Below, in pieces: positions 22,681 through 63,929 of a stretch of 64,000 nucleotides of DNA. The notes below the pieces were generated by a model. The model was given only the letters and a program-made list of their open reading frames with translations, ran no database searches and was not told where the DNA came from. This DNA is from Candidatus Methylomirabilota bacterium (GTDB lineage: Bacteria > Methylomirabilota > Methylomirabilia > Methylomirabilales > Methylomirabilaceae): assembly GCA_003104975.1 (NCBI GenBank), contig PQAM01000004.1:124001-188000 (forward strand), written 5' to 3'. The position numbers and the translations under genes are program-made. Numbering within the stretch: the first letter of the stretch is position 1; each line of letters opens with the position of its first letter.

Positions 22681-24234
22681 TCACAACTGTTCCATAAATG
22701 AGGCGATCTCGTCGACGGCAACATTCTGCACCACGATCTCCGGCGTATAGATCACCTCGTCGGCCGCCCAGACCAGGGTACCCTTGACCTCTTTGCCGAC
22801 CGCGACGATATTGGAGAGCATCGAGCGGATATTGTCGTTGATGCGTACCGTATTCGGTTTGAGCGGTGCGACGATCCGTCCGTCCTTAATGATGTAGGAG
22901 TCGCCGACAACCGTACAGGTGAAGTCCCCCGCCCGCAGCCCGTTGATCGGATAGGTGTACCAGATCCGACCGATCAGCAGGCCGTCTTGGACGCCGGCGA
23001 CCAGTTCCTCAAGGCCCTGGTCTCCGCCCTGCACGACGGCATTGGTCGACGCGATGCCGGGTTGGACACCGAACTGCCGGCCGCCGCCGGCCCAGAACCG
23101 GAATCCGTTCCGCGGGACGATTGCGCGGCCCTGTTCGTTCGGGTCTCCCCCCAGCTTCTCTGCCCCTCTGGGATCTTTGAGGATACGCTGCTGTTCATAA
23201 TGACTTGCGAGCAGTCCGACCAGTTTGCCGCGCTGGATCAGCCAAGTCTTCCCGGTCGGCAGTCCCTCGCAGGTAATTCCCTTGCTCCCCATCAGGCCGC
23301 GCTGCGCGCCGTGGTCGTACAGGGTCAATCGACTCGATGCCACGCGCTTGCCAAGCCGGCCCATGAAGGGCGAGCTGTCGCTGTAGAAGTTACTGAGGCT
23401 CACCGACGGCAGGATCAGATTGTTCAGGAGGTCGGCGACCGGCTGACGCCCGAAGATGACCGTATATCGCCCGCCCTTGATCCGCTCTCCGCCCATTGCC
23501 GCCAAGGCATTCTGTGCGGCCTCGACGCCGGCGTCATCGGTGAACTGATCCAGGTGGGTCCCGGCAGAGCAGCCGCTCCCCTTGGAGGCCTTGGCCTCAA
23601 CCATGGCGGTGATAAAGGCCATGATCAGCGTCGATTCGTCGGTCTGGACCTCCGGCATAGCGGTCGAGGCGATGGCGATCCGCTCCTGCTGGATGGTGAC
23701 GTCGCCGCCCACGATGAGACCCAGCTCTTTGATTCGATCCCTCGTGCCTGCCAGCTCCAGCAGCCGTGGGGAGTTGAGAAAGGTCTTGAGGCTTCCCTGC
23801 AACACCCGCCAACCAACCTCGACCAACTCCTCGTCCCGAATCTTCATCAGTTTCGGATCGTGGTAGCGGCGGAGCCTCCGCCGCTCGCCCGTCGGTCTCG
23901 GTAGCGACGAGAACTCGGGGTCGGCAACGGCGCCGCGCCGGGCCTTTTCGAGGGCCCTCTTGACCCCGTCGAGGCTCAGATCGCTCGGTTCGCTCCCGAA
24001 CCCGACCGTGACGCCGGCCTCTGTCTTGAACACCGCCGTGATACCCAGACCGTACGATTCGCTCGACTTCGGCTCTTCGACGCCGTTACAGGGGATGTGC
24101 GAGGTATAGTTCAGCCGGGTCAAGAGATTGCCGTTACTCGCCGCAAACACCTCGACCTCGGTCACCTGATCGGCCGACCCCAGATATCCCAGAGCCTGTT
24201 CGACGGCCTTTGTAAGTTCAGCGGTTGAAATCAT
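22681..24234 (-). CDS. TldD/PmbA (TldE) family metallopeptidase subunit
   Basis: The 517-residue protein belongs to the TldD/TldE family: an N-terminal alpha/beta domain with a fold around VEVFAASNGNLLTR, a middle beta-barrel, and a C-terminal region with RDGLLIGRIWYTYPINGLRAGDF-type sequence (about 420-445). It lacks the zinc-binding HExxxH helix, so it corresponds to TldE/PmbA, the non-catalytic partner of TldD. The pair degrades unfolded peptides and processes ribosomal peptides such as microcin B17. The TldD-like gene lies 103 bases upstream in the same direction, separated by a telomere-like array. Confidence 0.88.
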   Translation of the reverse strand: MISTAELTKAVEQALGYLGSADQVTEVEVFAASNGNLLTRLNYTSHIPCNGVEEPKSSESYGLGITAVFKTEAGVTVGFGSEPSDLSLDGVKRALEKARRGAVADPEFSSLPRPTGERRRLRRYHDPKLMKIRDEELVEVGWRVLQGSLKTFLNSPRLLELAGTRDRIKELGLIVGGDVTIQQERIAIASTAMPEVQTDESTLIMAFITAMVEAKASKGSGCSAGTHLDQFTDDAGVEAAQNALAAMGGERIKGGRYTVIFGRQPVADLLNNLILPSVSLSNFYSDSSPFMGRLGKRVASSRLTLYDHGAQRGLMGSKGITCEGLPTGKTWLIQRGKLVGLLASHYEQQRILKDPRGAEKLGGDPNEQGRAIVPRNGFRFWAGGGRQFGVQPGIASTNAVVQGGDQGLEELVAGVQDGLLIGRIWYTYPINGLRAGDFTCTVVGDSYIIKDGRIVAPLKPNTVRINDNIRSMLSNIVAVGKEVKGTLVWAADEVIYTPEIVVQNVAVDEIASFMEQL

Positions 24235-58317: not shown

Positions 58318-58691
58318 CGGTTATCCCTCAGCAATAGCTGCAGAATCCTTCCTGTGGAACTTTCTGGGGCTCGATGTGCCTCCGGATGTCATTCGGCCGG
58401 GCGTGCTTGCTCATGAAGGCCATGTTGTTGGCCGCAGAATTCCAGGATCCAGGTCGGTTCAGAACAATCTCGCCGCTCTCTCGCACCGAGCAGTGCCGGC
58501 ATCGGCTTTCTTTTTACGGCGATGGTCATCACGTTCACGCATCCCTATTTCGCGCGGACGGGATTTTATCACTTGCCCCATTATCTGTCTAGCGGTTGTT
58601 TCGAAACAGATAGCAAATCGGTCTTGACAGCCGACACATCGGTGCGATAGCTTCCACCTACGCTCTTTGGGGGCGCTAGTGAGGAGGTATC
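58318..58691. promoter_or_regulatory. Divergent intergenic region between gap and the pterin synthase gene
   Basis: This 374-base gap contains no credible gene. A 12-bp perfect palindrome TGTTTCGAAACA lies at 58597-58608. A possible promoter for the rightward gene is TTGACA at 58624-58629 with a weak GATAGC (58646-58651) 16 bases later. The palindrome is well placed to control both directions, but its regulator is unknown. Confidence 0.4.
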
Positions 58692-59180
58692 ATGGCTGCG
58701 TTTCGCATTAGGATTGATCACGAGAATCTGAAGTTCAGCTCGGCCCATTTTGTGCTTTTCGGCAACGGCAAATGCGAGGGCCTGCACGGGCATAACTACA
58801 GGGCCTGGGTGGAACTGGAAGGGTCGCTTCAGCCGAACGATTATGTCCTCGATTTCCTCGCCGTCAAGCCGCTTATGAAAGCGATCTGCGAGCAGCTCAA
58901 CCACAAGGTCATGCTGCCGACCGAGAATGCGGGCCTGCGGATCGAAAGCGGCGACATGATTGTCGATGCGGTCTACGGTAAGAAGCAGTACCGCTTTCCG
59001 ATTGAAGACGTCCTCTTGCTGCCGATCCATAACACCAGCGCAGAGCTGTTAGCCAGGTATATCTGCGGACTATTGCGGGAAGAGATCAAGCGTCAATACG
59101 GGGGCGAGGGGGTCGTCACTATCAGGGTCGGCGTACAGGAATCGTTTGGGCAGGAAGCCTCCTACGAAGAGGCCTTCTAG
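58692..59180 (+). CDS. 6-pyruvoyltetrahydropterin synthase / QueD family protein
   Basis: The 162-residue enzyme of the PTPS fold has the zinc histidines in FSSAHF (15-20) and LHGHNY (about 32-37), and the catalytic cysteine in GKCEGLHG. PTPS family members make 6-pyruvoyl- or 6-carboxy-tetrahydropterin from dihydroneopterin triphosphate. In methylotrophic bacteria a PTPS-like gene occurs beside tetrahydromethanopterin genes. Here it starts the one-carbon cofactor locus and converges with the HisA-like gene with a 4-base overlap. A queuosine precursor role (QueD) is the alternative; no other queuosine gene is nearby. Confidence 0.88.
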   Translation: MAAFRIRIDHENLKFSSAHFVLFGNGKCEGLHGHNYRAWVELEGSLQPNDYVLDFLAVKPLMKAICEQLNHKVMLPTENAGLRIESGDMIVDAVYGKKQYRFPIEDVLLLPIHNTSAELLARYICGLLREEIKRQYGGEGVVTIRVGVQESFGQEASYEEAF

Positions 59181-59953
59181 GTCTCTGCCTCCAGGCGATC
59201 CAAGGCCGTCCGCGTGATCGCCCCGCTGTGGAGCGTAGTGGCAAGCAGCGCCCCCGACGCGCCGGCGCGCTGCAGGCCTGTCAGGTCCGCGACCGATGCG
59301 ACGCCGCCGCCTACAATGAATCGCATATCGGGGGCGGCCGCCGTGACCCTGCCGAGTAACGCTGTATTGGGGCCGCCGCCCGTACCGATCCGGTCCATCT
59401 CGAGGAGAATCGCCTCACGACATCCGAGTGACAGCAGGCGTAAGGCTGCTGCGACCGGGTCGTTCGACTCGGTGGACGGTCTTTGCCAAACCACGGCTTG
59501 TGCTTTCAGATCGAGGCTGAAAAGCGCGCGCTCCGGACCCAGCGCGGCGAGAAGCCCGGATGCTGCATCACAACCCGCCAGTGACTCAGAGGCGATAATG
59601 ACCTTCTTTACGCCGGCATCCAACAGCCGCCTCGCCTGCTGGATATCGTGAATGCCGGCATCGACCAGCAACTGAAGCTGCGGCTCGGCAGCGGCCATCT
59701 TCTTGATCAGGGCCAGATTATCGCCGCCGCCCATGATCGCATCCAGATCGGCAACATAGACCGATGCGCTCTTAAGCGTTTCACAGTACGCCCGCAGGAG
59801 GATAACGGGATCGGCCCCTTGCAACAGAACGCTCTGGATCGGTTCGTATGCCCACCGCTCCCCTCTGCGCGCATGAACCGCAACCCCTCGCATGATATCG
59901 ATGACCGGTATGATCTGCACAGCAGCGATCGTCGCTTCTCCACAATACCCCAT
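59177..59953 (-). CDS. HisA-like TIM-barrel protein of one-carbon cofactor loci
   Basis: The 258-residue protein has the HisA/HisF-type barrel: PVIDIMRGVAVHARRG (16-31), VYVADLDAIMGGG (65-77), VDAGI, and the C-terminal phosphate site FIVGGGVASVADL. It sits among methanofuran genes, not in a histidine operon. HisA-like proteins of unproven function recur in bacterial tetrahydromethanopterin/methanofuran clusters. It probably acts on a phosphorylated sugar or pterin-type intermediate rather than in histidine synthesis. Confidence 0.8.
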   Translation of the reverse strand: MGYCGEATIAAVQIIPVIDIMRGVAVHARRGERWAYEPIQSVLLQGADPVILLRAYCETLKSASVYVADLDAIMGGGDNLALIKKMAAAEPQLQLLVDAGIHDIQQARRLLDAGVKKVIIASESLAGCDAASGLLAALGPERALFSLDLKAQAVVWQRPSTESNDPVAAALRLLSLGCREAILLEMDRIGTGGGPNTALLGRVTAAAPDMRFIVGGGVASVADLTGLQRAGASGALLATTLHSGAITRTALDRLEAET

Positions 59954-60012
59954 GCGCCGGCGGCCTACGCATGGGCTAAAAGTCTGTTGCGAGATCGTCC
60001 CGTCACTGGCTC

Positions 60013-60102
60013 GTCATTGCGAGCGACCAACGGGAGCACGGCAATCTCACCGTAGTTATCCCGAACGACTGTGAGATTGCTTCGGCTGCGCCTCGCAATG
60101 AC
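60013..60102. repeat. Palindromic dispersed repeat, copy B
   Basis: It begins GTCATTGCGAGCGACCAACG and ends CGCCTCGCAATGAC, with inner GGCAATCTCAC and GTGAGATTGCTTC halves. It is related to the in-frame copy at 20780-20878 and lies just before the mfnD-like gene. Confidence 0.75.
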
Positions 60103-60121
60103 ACGGGAGACATTCTAAGCG

Positions 60122-61171
60122 ATGAAGATATTCGTGCATGAGTGTATCACGGCCGGCGGGTTGGGTGAAGGCCCGGTCCCGGCGACGCTGCTGGCAGAGG
60201 GGCGCATGATGCTCCAGGCGCTGCTGGCCGATCTGCTTGACCTTCAAGAGCATCGGCTGGTCGTGCAGGTCGATCGGCGGTATCTGCCGCAACTGCGCCC
60301 TCACCCCGGTCTTCAGATCGTTGACAGCAGGGACGGCTACCATCACACCTTCCGACAGATGGTCGTAGAGGCGGATGCCACGTTTCTGATCGCCCCGGAG
60401 ACAGACGGCCGACTCGAGGCGATCACGGCAATAGTCGAACGTTGCGGCAAGTTGGTCGTAGGATCCGGCACTGCCGGCGTCAAGGTTGCCGGCAACAAGA
60501 TGCTCACCCATCGATGGCTGGAGGAGCACGGTATCTCCACCCCCGAGACGATTCATCTTCGCCCTGTTGATGACCCGCTGTCTATAGATCGGCGGCTTAG
60601 CTATCCTGTGGTCGCAAAACCGATAGACGGGGTCGGGTGTGACGGTGTATTCATTGCGCAAAGACCATCGGAATTGGAGCGGACGGCCGCGACCGCCAGG
60701 CAGACGACACCGGGTAAGGACCTCCTGTTGCAACACTACATCGACGGCGTTCATGCCAGCGTCTCCCTTTTGACCGACGGGAGCCGGTCTGTCCCGCTCA
60801 CCTTGAACCACCAGGAGATTAGAGGGCGAAGCCGACTGACGTATTACGGGGGGTGCGTCCCGTTTGAGCACCCGCTCCGTACCCTGGCGTTTCATCGGGC
60901 GGCGGAGGTCGTCCAGGCGATCCCCGGCCTCAAAGGGTATGTGGGAATCGATCTGGTCCTGACTGATGACGACGCCGTGGTTATCGAGGTGAATCCTCGC
61001 CTCACAACCTCGTACGTCGGGCTTCGAAAGGTCCTTCGACAGAATTTGGCTGCCCTGATGCTCGACGCAGCGGCAGGCAAGCTCCCGGACCCTGCCGACA
61101 TCGACATCATCGGGTCGGCGCACTTTACCACGCGGGACGGTACGATAACAGTCTCAGAGGGCGTACGGTGA
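60122..61171 (+). CDS. mfnD: ATP-grasp ligase, MfnD-like (tyramine-glutamate ligase type)
   Basis: The 349-residue protein is an ATP-grasp enzyme with the metal-binding end EVNPRLTTSYVGLRKVL (about 304-320) and an N-terminal FVHECITAGGLGE (4-16), both seen in the MfnD family. MfnD ligates glutamate to tyramine in methanofuran synthesis. The gene is followed at a 4-base overlap by an MfnF-like gene. In methylotrophic bacteria the homologue contributes to methylofuran, whose side chain differs from archaeal methanofuran. The ligase specificity is inferred from neighbourhood and motifs. Confidence 0.85.
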   Translation: MKIFVHECITAGGLGEGPVPATLLAEGRMMLQALLADLLDLQEHRLVVQVDRRYLPQLRPHPGLQIVDSRDGYHHTFRQMVVEADATFLIAPETDGRLEAITAIVERCGKLVVGSGTAGVKVAGNKMLTHRWLEEHGISTPETIHLRPVDDPLSIDRRLSYPVVAKPIDGVGCDGVFIAQRPSELERTAATARQTTPGKDLLLQHYIDGVHASVSLLTDGSRSVPLTLNHQEIRGRSRLTYYGGCVPFEHPLRTLAFHRAAEVVQAIPGLKGYVGIDLVLTDDDAVVIEVNPRLTTSYVGLRKVLRQNLAALMLDAAAGKLPDPADIDIIGSAHFTTRDGTITVSEGVR

Positions 61172-62199
61172 TTCGCATAATTGGATGGGACATCGGCGGC
61201 GCGAACGTGAAGGCCGCCCGCCTGCTGTGTGCCGACGGGCGTGCGGAAAGCGGGCGCGCGGTTCGCCGCCATTTCGAGCTGTGGCATAACAGCAATAGCC
61301 TCCACTCACTCCTGCAAACGATCTATGCCGAGCTGGGACCTACGGATGCCATGGTGGTGACGATGACCGGAGAGCTCTGTGATGCGTTCGCCGACAGGGC
61401 CGAAGGGGTCGCGTTCATCATCAACGCGGTGAGAGCGGCGGTCCCCGACATCCCGCTGTACGCGATCGATCTTGATGGTCGGCTTATGTGTTTAGACACG
61501 GGGGAGGTCGAGCTGCTCACACTCGCGCCGACCAATTGGATCGCCGAGGCGATGGTCCTGGCAACCCGGCAACCGGACTGCCTGATGATGGATATCGGCA
61601 GCACCACGACCGATCTGATTCCGATCATGGGCGGCAGGCCGATCGCACGGGGCAAGCGGGACATCGAGCGGTTGGCGCACGGAGAGCTGATCTACACCGG
61701 CGCACTCCGCACGCCGGTCGCTGCCATCGCATCCGGCATCCCTGTGCGAGGTGTGATCTGTCGAATATCGGCCGAATACTTCGCCATCTCTGCCGATGTG
61801 TATCTGGCGTTGGGACAGCTCACCTCGGACGACTATACCTGCGCAGCGCCAGACGGGGGCGAGAAAACGAGCGAGGGGGCGCTGCGTCGGCTGGCCAGAG
61901 TAGTCTGCGAAGACAGCAAGCACCTCACAGCGAGCGAGCTTCACACTATGGCCGCCTATATCGCCGAACAGCAGATCCAACAGATTACGGAGGGGATGTT
62001 TCAGGTCCTCTCCAGGATCGAGAACGGTCTCCATTTCCCTGTCGTACCGGTGGGGATCGGCGCCTTCCTGGGGGAGACCTGCGCAAGACGACTGGGCCTT
62101 ACAGTGTGTGACGCCCCGGCACTCATCGACAGCGGGGCGGTGTCATTGAGTCCTTGCACGGCAGCCGCCTACCTGTTGGGACGCGAATTGTCCCGATAG
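61168..62199 (+). CDS. mfnF: H4MPT-linked C1 pathway protein, MfnF-like
   Basis: The 343-residue protein belongs to the hydantoinase/actin-like ATPase superfamily, with IGWDIGGANVKAARL (3-17) and the phosphate-loop type DIGSTTTDLIPI (about 142-153). MfnF joins the furan and tyramine-glutamate parts of methanofuran. Translational coupling with mfnD and the mfnE-like gene 107 bases downstream supports the assignment. In the literature this family was first called an H4MPT-linked C1-transfer pathway protein. Confidence 0.85.
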   Translation: MIRIIGWDIGGANVKAARLLCADGRAESGRAVRRHFELWHNSNSLHSLLQTIYAELGPTDAMVVTMTGELCDAFADRAEGVAFIINAVRAAVPDIPLYAIDLDGRLMCLDTGEVELLTLAPTNWIAEAMVLATRQPDCLMMDIGSTTTDLIPIMGGRPIARGKRDIERLAHGELIYTGALRTPVAAIASGIPVRGVICRISAEYFAISADVYLALGQLTSDDYTCAAPDGGEKTSEGALRRLARVVCEDSKHLTASELHTMAAYIAEQQIQQITEGMFQVLSRIENGLHFPVVPVGIGAFLGETCARRLGLTVCDAPALIDSGAVSLSPCTAAAYLLGRELSR

Positions 62200-62203
62200 C
62201 AAT

Positions 62204-62256
62204 GTAGGGGCGCTGCTTGCTGCGCCCAGGATGGGCAGGGCAAGCCCTGCCCCTAC
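62204..62256. repeat. Two-hairpin dispersed repeat, copy 3
   Basis: A 53-bp unit GTAGGGGCGCTGCTTGCTGC to GCCCTGCCCCTAC in the same orientation as copy 1, located between the mfnF-like and mfnE-like genes. Confidence 0.8.
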
Positions 62257-62306
62257 GATAGCGATCCGATCTTGCACATACAGAGCCGAGCGCCGATAGG
62301 TGATTC

Positions 62307-62972
62307 ATGAAAATCGACACTGTCATCAAGGTGGGCGGCAGTCTCGGCCGGTGGCGAGGGATCGGAAAGCTGCTCGATTCCATTGAGCAGTGGAGAGGCT
62401 CCGCTAACGTATTGGTCGTTCCGGGCGGCGGCGTCTTTGCCGATCTGGTGCGGACCGAGTATCGCCGATCACGGCTTACCGAACGCACCGCGCATCGGAT
62501 GGCCATCCTGGCGATGGATCAGTACGGTCTTCAACTGTGCGATCTCGCCTCTCTGGCCACGCCCGTCTCCAGTCTGCATCAGATCACGAGGGTTGTCCGA
62601 GACGGTCGCCTTCCGGTCTACCTCCCCTCCCGATCCCTCTTACGTTGGGATCCCTTTACGCCGTCGTGGGGTGTGACCTCGGATTCGATCGCCGCCTACA
62701 TCGCCGGCCTCGTAAAGGCCGATACCCTACTGCTCTTGAAGTCTGTAGACGGACTCTTCGCGCAGGATCCGAAGGCGAACCTATCGGCGCCCCTGCTGCC
62801 GAGCATTACGCGTGTACAGCTCCAGCGTTACGGCGGTGTGGATCGTGAGTTTGGCGGATGGCTGAACGGGATCGCGTGCTGCTGGATCATCAACGGGACG
62901 CATCCCGCTCGTGTGAAAGAGTGGCTGGAATGCAGGAGAACAGTCGGGACCTGCGTGGTTATGCGGCAATAA
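62307..62972 (+). CDS. mfnE: Amino-acid-kinase family protein, MfnE-like
   Basis: The 221-residue protein has the amino-acid-kinase fold: VIKVGGSLGRW (6-16), VVPGGGVFADLVR (about 37-49), and LLLKSVDGLF near 143-152. MfnE phosphorylates aminomethylfuran phosphate to the diphosphate used by MfnF. The position between mfnF- and mfnB-like genes supports the assignment; an unrelated aspartate/uridylate-type kinase is the alternative. Confidence 0.82.
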   Translation: MKIDTVIKVGGSLGRWRGIGKLLDSIEQWRGSANVLVVPGGGVFADLVRTEYRRSRLTERTAHRMAILAMDQYGLQLCDLASLATPVSSLHQITRVVRDGRLPVYLPSRSLLRWDPFTPSWGVTSDSIAAYIAGLVKADTLLLLKSVDGLFAQDPKANLSAPLLPSITRVQLQRYGGVDREFGGWLNGIACCWIINGTHPARVKEWLECRRTVGTCVVMRQ

Positions 62973-63030
62973 GCTGTCAGCCGTCAGCTTACAGCTCTTA
63001 GCTGACCGCTAATGGCTGATAGCTGAGCAC
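62972..63030. repeat. Short GCTGA-type repetitive sequence at the mfnB 3' end
   Basis: Irregular AGCTGT, AGCTTA, AGCTGA, GGCTGATAGCTGA units fill the gap and run into the last codons of mfnB. Shorter stretches of the same style occur near 5240, 45330 and 52700. Confidence 0.5.
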
Positions 63031-63720
63031 CGAACGCAGGAGCTTCACCTGTTCGGCAGACAACGCCCCACGCCGCTCCCCCCCTGCACATGCTGCACCT
63101 CGCACACCGACAATATCGGCGCCGAGCGCCAGCGCCCTGGGAAGATCCGCCAACTGTAGGGAGCCCGCCAGACCGCAGAAGAGACCTCGATCGTGGCATG
63201 CCTGAACGAACCGGGCGATGGCGTCTTCTGAAAGACACTGAAAGAGCGAACGCCCGTCTTTGATGGCGGTATCGATGAGGCATCCCTCAACAAAGGGGAC
63301 AGCAGCATCAGGCAGCTCAAACGGATCAAGCGAGCCCACGCGGGCGGCATCGGCGTACGCACAGGCCACCAGACCCACGGTACTGTTCATCATCCGCAAC
63401 GCGCCGCTGACGGCACCAAGCAGGCAGGCGGCCTCCGCCCCTGTCCGAGCGCCCAACAGTCCCACCTTGACGTATCGGACCCCGCAGGTAGCCGCCCCCA
63501 GACCGGCGAGGGCGACAGTTCCCGGCAGATTCGGAACATCGCCGATCGCTGCGCTGACAGGGGTTGCGCCCCGGACCGCTCGAACGATTGCCGTGATCGT
63601 CTCCGGCCGCGCCGCCCCCAGCGATCCCTCGGCCGGGTTCTTGACATCAATGATATCCGCCCCACCGGCCAAGGCGGCTGCCGCCTCGTGCTCGTCCCGT
63701 ACGCTGATCATCAGCTTCAT
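62998..63720 (-). CDS. mfnB: (5-formylfuran-3-yl)methyl phosphate synthase, MfnB-like
   Basis: MfnB condenses two glyceraldehyde-3-phosphate units to the furan ring of methanofuran. The 240-residue TIM-barrel protein starts at ATG 63720 (GGAG upstream); ATG 63747 adds nine residues. Family features are SVRDEHEA (5-12), ADIIDVKNPAEGSLGA (about 22-37), KVGL, and the active-site-type KDGRSLFQ (about 155-162). It converges with mfnE. The C-terminal residues are encoded within a short repetitive sequence (GCTGATAGCTGA type). Confidence 0.92.
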   Translation of the reverse strand: MKLMISVRDEHEAAAALAGGADIIDVKNPAEGSLGAARPETITAIVRAVRGATPVSAAIGDVPNLPGTVALAGLGAATCGVRYVKVGLLGARTGAEAACLLGAVSGALRMMNSTVGLVACAYADAARVGSLDPFELPDAAVPFVEGCLIDTAIKDGRSLFQCLSEDAIARFVQACHDRGLFCGLAGSLQLADLPRALALGADIVGVRGAACAGGERRGALSAEQVKLLRSVLSYQPLAVS

Positions 63721-63929
63721 CGCGCTCTCCACAAACTGTGCCTTCATGCGTAACCGTTGGTTTGTATCGGAAAGCGCCGGGAGGTGTCAAGGAAGAAATG
63801 CGTGAGCGGTCGCAAGAGGGCTTCGACAGGTTCCGGAAGGAACTCCCAAGAAGCTTCCCAGCCGTGACGAAAGGAGACGACAGATCGTAGACAGTATCCT
63901 GAGGTTCATTCACTTGAGCGGAATACCTC

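What the first reader, a model, noticed from the sequence alone, without database searches (positions are those of the whole stretch)
58692..63720. Bacterial methanofuran-type cofactor gene set
PTPS-like, HisA-like, mfnD-, mfnF-, mfnE- and mfnB-like genes lie within 5 kb. This indicates methylofuran (and pterin) synthesis for formaldehyde or formyl transfer, as in methylotrophs. Genes for tyrosine decarboxylase (MfnA) and the furan aminotransferase (MfnC) are missing here.
Basis: partly seen in the sequence, partly recalled or inferred. Interest (0 to 1): 0.55.

Follow-up and report, generated by a model that had tools for sequence, protein, structure and literature searches.

The report
Methylofuran gene cluster, methane-oxidising bacterium
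This is a set of genes, probably for making the formyl carrier that a methane-eating bacterium uses to oxidise formaldehyde; the pathway is known, but an enzyme usually tied to a tRNA modification seems to have taken over a standard vitamin-synthesis step here.

Summary
Six genes at 58692-63747 encode a PTPS protein, a HisA-like protein, and MfnD-, MfnF-, MfnE- and MfnB-like proteins. The genome is a 3.0-Mb NC10 (Methylomirabilota) genome. The HisA-like gene corresponds to orf17, which a published deletion shows is needed for methylofuran, role unknown. The core order equals that of a proteobacterial island, so most of this is known. No PF00282 (MfnA-type) gene was found; MfnC cannot be assigned. 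The least ordinary part is the PTPS gene. It is the only PTPS hit in the genome and carries CExxHGH, the published PTPS-I/III hybrid motif. FolB and archaeal DHNA gave no hit; HPPK and QueC did. Across 70 Methylomirabilota genomes, 12 of 12 with MfnF lack FolB; 56 of 58 without MfnF have it. In one distant member PTPS adjoins CitG-RimK genes, where a proteobacterial island has an annotated dihydroneopterin aldolase. I infer that this PTPS replaces FolB for folate and H4MPT, perhaps also serving as QueD. No activity was tested.

The parts
58692..59180 (+). PTPS (COG0720) with motif C-E-G-L-H-G-H; inferred replacement of dihydroneopterin aldolase, possibly also QueD
   Evidence: PF01242 8.8e-21; nearest solved structures are annotated 6-pyruvoyl tetrahydropterin synthases, E about 1e-20 (that they are Plasmodium proteins is recalled); only PTPS hit in the genome; motif conserved in all 16 mfn-type PTPS sequences read
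59177..59953 (-). HisA/HisF-like TIM-barrel protein, counterpart of Orf17 of proteobacterial methylotrophs; convergent with PTPS, stop codons overlapping
   Evidence: PF00977 1e-38; separate HisA and HisF lie on contig C19; same place beside the MfnD-type gene in four of four proteobacterial islands
60122..61171 (+). ATP-grasp ligase of the MfnD (Orf1) type, presumed tyramine/tyrosine:glutamate ligase; not MyfA
   Evidence: NF040722 1.6e-43; 28.7-34.8% over nearly full length to the MfnD-slot proteins of four islands, only partial matches to the MyfA-slot proteins
61168..62199 (+). MfnF homologue (H4MPT-linked C1 pathway protein), start overlapping the mfnD stop
   Evidence: TIGR03123 333.3 bits, cut-off 244.1; NF040623 1.8e-59; solved archaeal homologue 3c0b 4e-45
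62307..62972 (+). MfnE homologue (amino-acid-kinase family)
   Evidence: NF040622 7e-36; PF00696 2.1e-17
62998..63747 (-). MfnB homologue, (5-formylfuran-3-yl)methyl phosphate synthase; alternative start at 63720
   Evidence: PF04476 1.9e-73; NF002575 4.8e-70

Best explanation
This is the methylofuran branch of H4MPT-linked formaldehyde oxidation in an NC10 methanotroph, with the pterin-aldolase gene attached. Proposed working, from the named families: MfnB condenses two glyceraldehyde-3-phosphates to the furan phosphate; an unassigned aminotransferase makes the amine; MfnE makes the diphosphate; MfnD joins tyrosine or tyramine to glutamate; MfnF joins furan and phenol parts; MyfA and MyfB, encoded elsewhere, lengthen the glutamate chain; methylofuran then carries formyl groups in Fhc. 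The Orf17 protein is needed at an early, undefined step. The PTPS protein releases 6-hydroxymethyl-dihydropterin in place of FolB, for HPPK and so for H4MPT and folate. Shown here: genes, order, genome content, motif, co-occurrence. Inferred: every reaction.
For: Families. Fhc/fae/mtdB-type/mch/RimK-type genes. MyfA- and MyfB-like ligases (up to 31.7% and 39.0% over nearly full length to the proteobacterial slot proteins). Same core order orf17(-) mfnD(+) mfnF(+) in four of four proteobacterial plasmid islands, and the full orf17-mfnD-mfnF-mfnE-mfnB order with the same orientations in Aquabacterium olei. PTPS role: one PTPS, no FolB, no archaeal DHNA, HPPK present; 12 of 12 MfnF-positive genomes lack FolB against 2 of 58 others; Glu at the PTPS-III position in 16 of 16 mfn-type PTPS sequences and 0 of 53 motifs in 30 other PTPS loci. 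In G061 the PTPS gene adjoins the CitG-RimK pair, as the annotated dihydroneopterin aldolase adjoins CitG in A. olei. Published: PTPS-III motif and role (PMC5041015); Plasmodium Glu38 needed for 6-hydroxymethyl-dihydropterin (PMC2229834).
Against: The four mfn homologues score below the curated NCBIfam equivalog cut-offs. No MfnC assigned; no PF00282 hit. mfnE and mfnB were not seen near mfnF in three relatives for which 5.6-6.3 kb downstream was fetched (L074, L075, L077), so the set is not one fixed operon. G017 has both FolB and a CExxHGH PTPS and no MfnF hit. The FolB association is phylogenetically clumped: nine of the 12 MfnF genomes are one genus. No chemistry was tested.
Confidence: 0.82

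Rival explanations
1. The PTPS gene is an ordinary QueD for queuosine that happens to sit beside the methylofuran genes; an unknown enzyme does the aldolase step.
For: CxxxHGH is contained in the motif and the genome has a strong QueC (253 bits) and no other PTPS.
Against: It scores below the QueD equivalog cut-off (60 of 89.25 bits). It carries the PTPS-III Glu. FolB and DHNA families gave no hit. G006 and G010 keep the same motif without a convincing QueC hit (22.4 bits; none), and G061 keeps it although it has another PTPS on the contig that carries its QueC.
Confidence: 0.15
2. The furan genes make something other than methylofuran, for example a furan natural product.
For: MfnB homologues also occur on Streptomyces plasmids (11 of 43 records), where I did not check for an Fhc complex.
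Against: MfnD, E, F and Orf17 homologues accompany it, and Fhc, Mch, Fae and MyfA/MyfB-like proteins are in the genome.
Confidence: 0.04
3. The cofactor is the tyramine form, with tyramine made by a decarboxylase unrelated to MfnA. A candidate is the fold-III PLP decarboxylase whose gene overlaps that of the MyfA-like ligase on contig C8.
For: MfnD-type ligase present, no PF00282; the two genes overlap by 4 bases; it falls below the lysA cut-off (213 of 297.9 bits) and has C-T-P-S-E where the aligned diaminopimelate decarboxylase 2p3e has C-E-T-G-D.
Against: In G005 the MyfA-like gene lies beside PTPS and no such decarboxylase is among the L068 neighbours scanned. I could not look for the pair in other genomes, nor for a second lysA. 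The tyrosine form needs no decarboxylase, and a strain with an MfnD-like gene, M. album, makes the tyrosine form (PMC8141765).
Confidence: 0.12

Closest known systems
Methylofuran biosynthesis set of proteobacterial methylotrophs (MfnB/Orf22, MfnE/Orf21, MfnF/Orf9, MfnD/Orf1, Orf17, MyfA/OrfY, MyfB/Orf5)
   Same: All listed members have a counterpart in this genome; the core order and orientations equal those of the Aquabacterium olei plasmid island
   Different: Split over at least three contigs (C3, C4, C8); PTPS is attached to the mfn set, where the A. olei island has an annotated dihydroneopterin aldolase; the window proteins are only 28.7-41.7% identical to those of the four islands
PTPS-I/III hybrids of COG0720 (PMC5041015)
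   Same: CExxHGH motif; here no FolB, QueC present, single PTPS
   Different: Linked here to methylofuran and H4MPT genes in a bacterium, so it should feed H4MPT too; activity untested
PTPS-III of Plasmodium (PMC2229834)
   Same: Best solved-structure matches over about 150 residues, with the same Glu (source organism of those chains recalled)
   Different: Here the Cys is kept beside the Glu; the Plasmodium enzyme has Glu in place of the active-site Cys
HisA / HisF
   Same: Fold family PF00977; the strand-1 and strand-5 Asp are kept in 16 of 16 sequences read
   Different: Gly-Gly of the strand-3 loop is replaced (Asp in 16 of 16) and a Glu stands in the strand-4 loop (16 of 16); true HisA and HisF are separate genes

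Membership tests
Bacterial methylofuran biosynthesis set | MfnB homologue (PF04476) | tested here: met
   1.9e-73; below the NCBIfam equivalog cut-offs
Bacterial methylofuran biosynthesis set | MfnF homologue (TIGR03123) | tested here: met
   333.3 bits against cut-off 244.1; MfnF equivalog model 202 of 520 bits
Bacterial methylofuran biosynthesis set | MfnE homologue | tested here: met
   NF040622 7e-36, best model, below cut-off
Bacterial methylofuran biosynthesis set | Glutamate ligases: MfnD type, MyfA type, MyfB type | tested here: met
   window gene groups with the MfnD slot, C8 gene with the MyfA slot, C3 gene with the RimK (MyfB) slot
Bacterial methylofuran biosynthesis set | Orf17 (HisA-like) counterpart | tested here: met
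   same place in four of four islands, 29.7-34.0% identity
Bacterial methylofuran biosynthesis set | Fhc complex that uses the cofactor | tested here: met
   fhcB, A, D, C all over cut-off
Bacterial methylofuran biosynthesis set | MfnA tyrosine decarboxylase (expected only for the tyramine form, and not defining) | tested here: not met
   no PF00282 in the genome; 8 of 14 controls ring. Three strains that make the tyramine form also lack it (PMC8141765)
Bacterial methylofuran biosynthesis set | MfnC aminotransferase | not tested
   not assignable by similarity; still unassigned in M. extorquens too (PMC8141765)
Bacterial methylofuran biosynthesis set | Methylofuran present in cells | not testable with these tools
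   needs LC-MS
PTPS-III / PTPS-I/III hybrid | ExxHGH motif, with CxxxHGH for the hybrid | tested here: met
PTPS-III / PTPS-I/III hybrid | Stands in for a missing FolB | tested here: met
   FolB and DHNA families absent; genomic evidence only
PTPS-III / PTPS-I/III hybrid | Forms 6-hydroxymethyl-dihydropterin | not testable with these tools
   needs an enzyme assay or folB complementation
QueD equivalog (TIGR03367) | Score over the curated cut-off | tested here: not met
   60 of 89.25 bits
HisA equivalog (TIGR00007) | Score over the curated cut-off | tested here: not met
   93 of 228.95 bits; own HisA and HisF elsewhere

The most novel reading that the evidence does not exclude
In this NC10 lineage one PTPS enzyme with both catalytic motifs is the only entry from dihydroneopterin phosphates into three end products: queuosine (as QueD), folate and tetrahydromethanopterin (as the FolB replacement). 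It sits in the methylofuran cluster so that both C1 cofactors are supplied together.
Probability: 0.45. Interest if true: 0.5.

Novelty: new variant of a known kind. Interest (0 to 1): 0.36.

Why it matters
It completes the methylofuran part of the C1 pathway in nitrite-dependent methanotrophs, fills the aldolase gap of their folate and H4MPT synthesis with a testable candidate, and strengthens Orf17, a gene of known need and unknown chemistry, as a core part of the set across distant phyla. Its conserved acidic residues opposite a retained glycine loop give a concrete handle on its substrate.

Tried and rejected
Window annotation as tRNA or RNA families: one odd ARAGORN call and no Rfam match, nothing relevant.

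MfnA by Pfam PF00282 in the own genome: none. MfnC was not searched, because its aminotransferase family has many paralogues and no diagnostic feature is known to me.

I asked whether the mfnD-like gene could be MyfA instead: rejected. I asked whether the Cys in CExxHGH is kept only where queuosine needs it: not so. G006 and G010 lack a convincing QueC hit, and G061 has another PTPS on its QueC contig, yet all keep Cys and Glu. The link to queuosine is therefore not shown.

Plasmid search with the C8 decarboxylase gave mostly annotated diaminopimelate decarboxylases at 27-31% identity in the 15 of 251 records listed, and did not decide its role. The tBLASTn of MfnB in plasmids gave Streptomyces and Azospirillum records and was used only for the rival reading. 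Structure prediction was not run: sequence matches to solved structures already gave the folds.

In one search the row labelled own_HisA was in fact HisF; one search gives the true HisA (240 aa, row HisA1) and HisF (276 aa, row HisF2) beside other frames of the same loci. In one search the Orf17 rows of G021 and G022 read only 6 residues because my ranges began before an early stop; they are left out of the 16 sequences counted. The 70 genomes are all that the phylum search returned at completeness 85 or more. The eight genomes with weak MfnF hits only (19.4-23.2 bits, none over cut-off) were counted as MfnF-negative.
Full report
What the window is. It lies at G000:C4:124001-188000 of a 3,001,605-base genome in 19 contigs, 99.99% complete. 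The MfnF-like protein finds only two records in genome contigs, both Methylomirabilota, at 75 and 78% identity. It is thus a Candidatus Methylomirabilis-like NC10 genome; records of the genome itself may be hidden from that search.

The six genes. Families and scores are in the observation check. PTPS (+) and the HisA-like gene (-) converge with overlapping stops; the HisA-like and mfnD genes diverge; mfnD and mfnF overlap; mfnE follows after 107 bases; mfnB faces them.

The rest of the pathway. On contig C3, L005 holds, in one direction, fae, a gene with the methylene-H4MPT dehydrogenase N-terminal domain, fhcB, fhcA, fhcD, fhcC, mch, a RimK-type ligase and a CitG-like gene. That H4MPT-dependent formaldehyde oxidation occurs in NC10 is in print (PMC6094997, passages; PMC5020050, first part of the text and passages). 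The ligase matches the RimK-type ligases of proteobacterial islands at 33-39%, the place of MyfB. A second ATP-grasp protein on contig C8 (L016:9076-10230) matches the MyfA-slot proteins over nearly full length (25-32%) and the MfnD-slot proteins only in part. The window gene behaves the other way round. So the genome has all three ligase types. That the slot beside mch is MyfA and the RimK slot MyfB follows from the descriptions in PMC8141765; the island records themselves say only 'ATP-grasp' and 'RimK family'.

Orf17. PMC8141765 (abstract, first part of Results, Discussion, and passages seen) reports that deletion of orf17, a HisA-family gene, abolishes methylofuran in M. extorquens while methenyl-dH4MPT is still made, and leaves its role open. 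In the four proteobacterial islands read here the HisA/HisF-related gene stands directly beside the MfnD-type gene, divergent from it, as in the window. In 16 sequences (12 NC10, 4 plasmid), aligned with the genome's own HisA and HisF, the strand-1 and strand-5 Asp and the strand-7 Gly-Gly are always kept. The strand-3 Gly-Gly has become Asp-Ala (Asp in 16 of 16, Ala in 15 of 16), and the strand-4 loop always has a Glu. That strands 3/4 and 7/8 carry the two phosphate sites of HisA and that the two Asp are its catalytic pair is recalled, not from a call. If so, Orf17 should bind one phosphate at the strand-7/8 end and a hydroxyl or amine at the other. That would suit a furan methyl phosphate of the MfnB-MfnE branch. 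This is inference.

Gene order in relatives. Of 18 relative loci searched with window proteins, 14 contain both PTPS and the HisA-like gene, and in 13 the two are adjacent; in L071 (G061) a pabB-type gene lies between them. mfnE and mfnB follow mfnF in five relative loci (L002, L068, L070, L071, and L072 after an extra 1.5 kb). They were not seen in L074, L075 and L077 although 5.6-6.3 kb downstream was at hand; other loci end too early to tell. Transketolase and GAPDH genes precede the set in the genus.

The PTPS gene. The genome has one PTPS hit, no FolB (10 of 14 controls ring), no archaeal DHNA (3 of 14 controls ring), one HPPK and a QueC at 253 bits. The motif is C-E-G-L-H-G-H. PMC5041015 (passages) states that ExxHGH marks PTPS-III and CxxxHGH marks QueD, that CExxHGH hybrids exist and can serve folate and queuosine, and that some archaeal PTPS-III act in H4MPT synthesis. 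PMC2229834 (passages and one section) shows that the Plasmodium enzyme makes 6-hydroxymethyl-dihydropterin and that changing its Glu abolishes that product. All 16 mfn-type PTPS sequences read (14 genomes, plus L002 and a second copy in G020) have CExxHGH. In the 30 other PTPS loci returned (L017-L046), 53 motifs were found, none with the Glu and 27 with the Cys.

Co-occurrence. In 70 Methylomirabilota genomes MfnF is over cut-off in 12. FolB is absent from all 12 and from 2 of the 58 others (G009, 88% complete; G010, where the contig ends inside the set). Taking the CExxHGH PTPS instead: 13 of 14 lack FolB, against 1 of 56 others; the exception is G017, which has both. The Fisher values near 1e-11 ignore kinship: nine of the 12 are one genus, two a second genus of the same order, and one (G061) lies in another family of the class. 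In G061 the PTPS gene adjoins CitG- and RimK-type genes. In the Aquabacterium olei island, an annotated dihydroneopterin aldolase adjoins the CitG- and RimK-type genes. This is the best single sign that PTPS fills the FolB place. In G005 the PTPS gene lies beside the MyfA-like gene, with a dihydropteroate-synthase-like gene beyond mfnB.

Against and open. That the Cys serves queuosine is weakened by G006, G010 and G061 (see rivals). MfnC is unassigned. Whether the core holds tyrosine or tyramine cannot be told; a fold-III PLP decarboxylase overlapping the MyfA-like gene is a candidate for a non-MfnA decarboxylase, with weak support.

In print or not. Searches of the held open library listed no paper whose title or opening abstract treats methylofuran synthesis genes or PTPS in Methylomirabilis. 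Listings and the parts named above are all I saw, so this is no proof of absence; Ettwig et al. 2010, Pribat et al. 2009 and the hybrid-PTPS paper cited in PMC5041015 were not read.

Verdict. The pathway is known in kind and in this phylum; the variant is the PTPS-for-FolB exchange tied to the C1-cofactor genes.

Noticed in passing
L016:9076-11534 (G000:C8): A MyfA-like ATP-grasp gene overlaps by 4 bases a fold-III PLP decarboxylase gene that is below the lysA cut-off and has C-T-P-S-E in place of the C-E-x-x-D motif; a TonB-dependent receptor gene follows. Possible non-MfnA decarboxylase, or part of a metallophore set.
   Followed up: partly
window 58318-58691: In L002 a phosphoribulokinase gene (L002:4382-5389) lies between GAPDH and PTPS; in the window only 374 bases remain there, so it seems lost or moved.
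   Followed up: no
window 59954-60121, 62200-62306, 62973-62997: Repeat-like sequences sit at three junctions inside the set; each core motif occurs once more elsewhere in the window (the third with two mismatches), more than shuffles give.
   Followed up: partly
L017-L045 (PTPS loci of other Methylomirabilota): Many genomes carry tandem PTPS genes, one with CxxxHGH and one with an L-T-x-x-H-G-H motif that has neither Cys nor Glu; role unknown.
   Followed up: no
L005:5483-6940: A multihaem protein matching the hydrazine dehydrogenase model (365.6 bits, below its cut-off of 900) lies just past the CitG-like gene of the Fhc island; probably a hydroxylamine-oxidoreductase relative.
   Followed up: no
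window 23913-24008: ARAGORN calls a tRNA with a four-base anticodon inside a PmbA/TldD-family gene; probably false.
   Followed up: no
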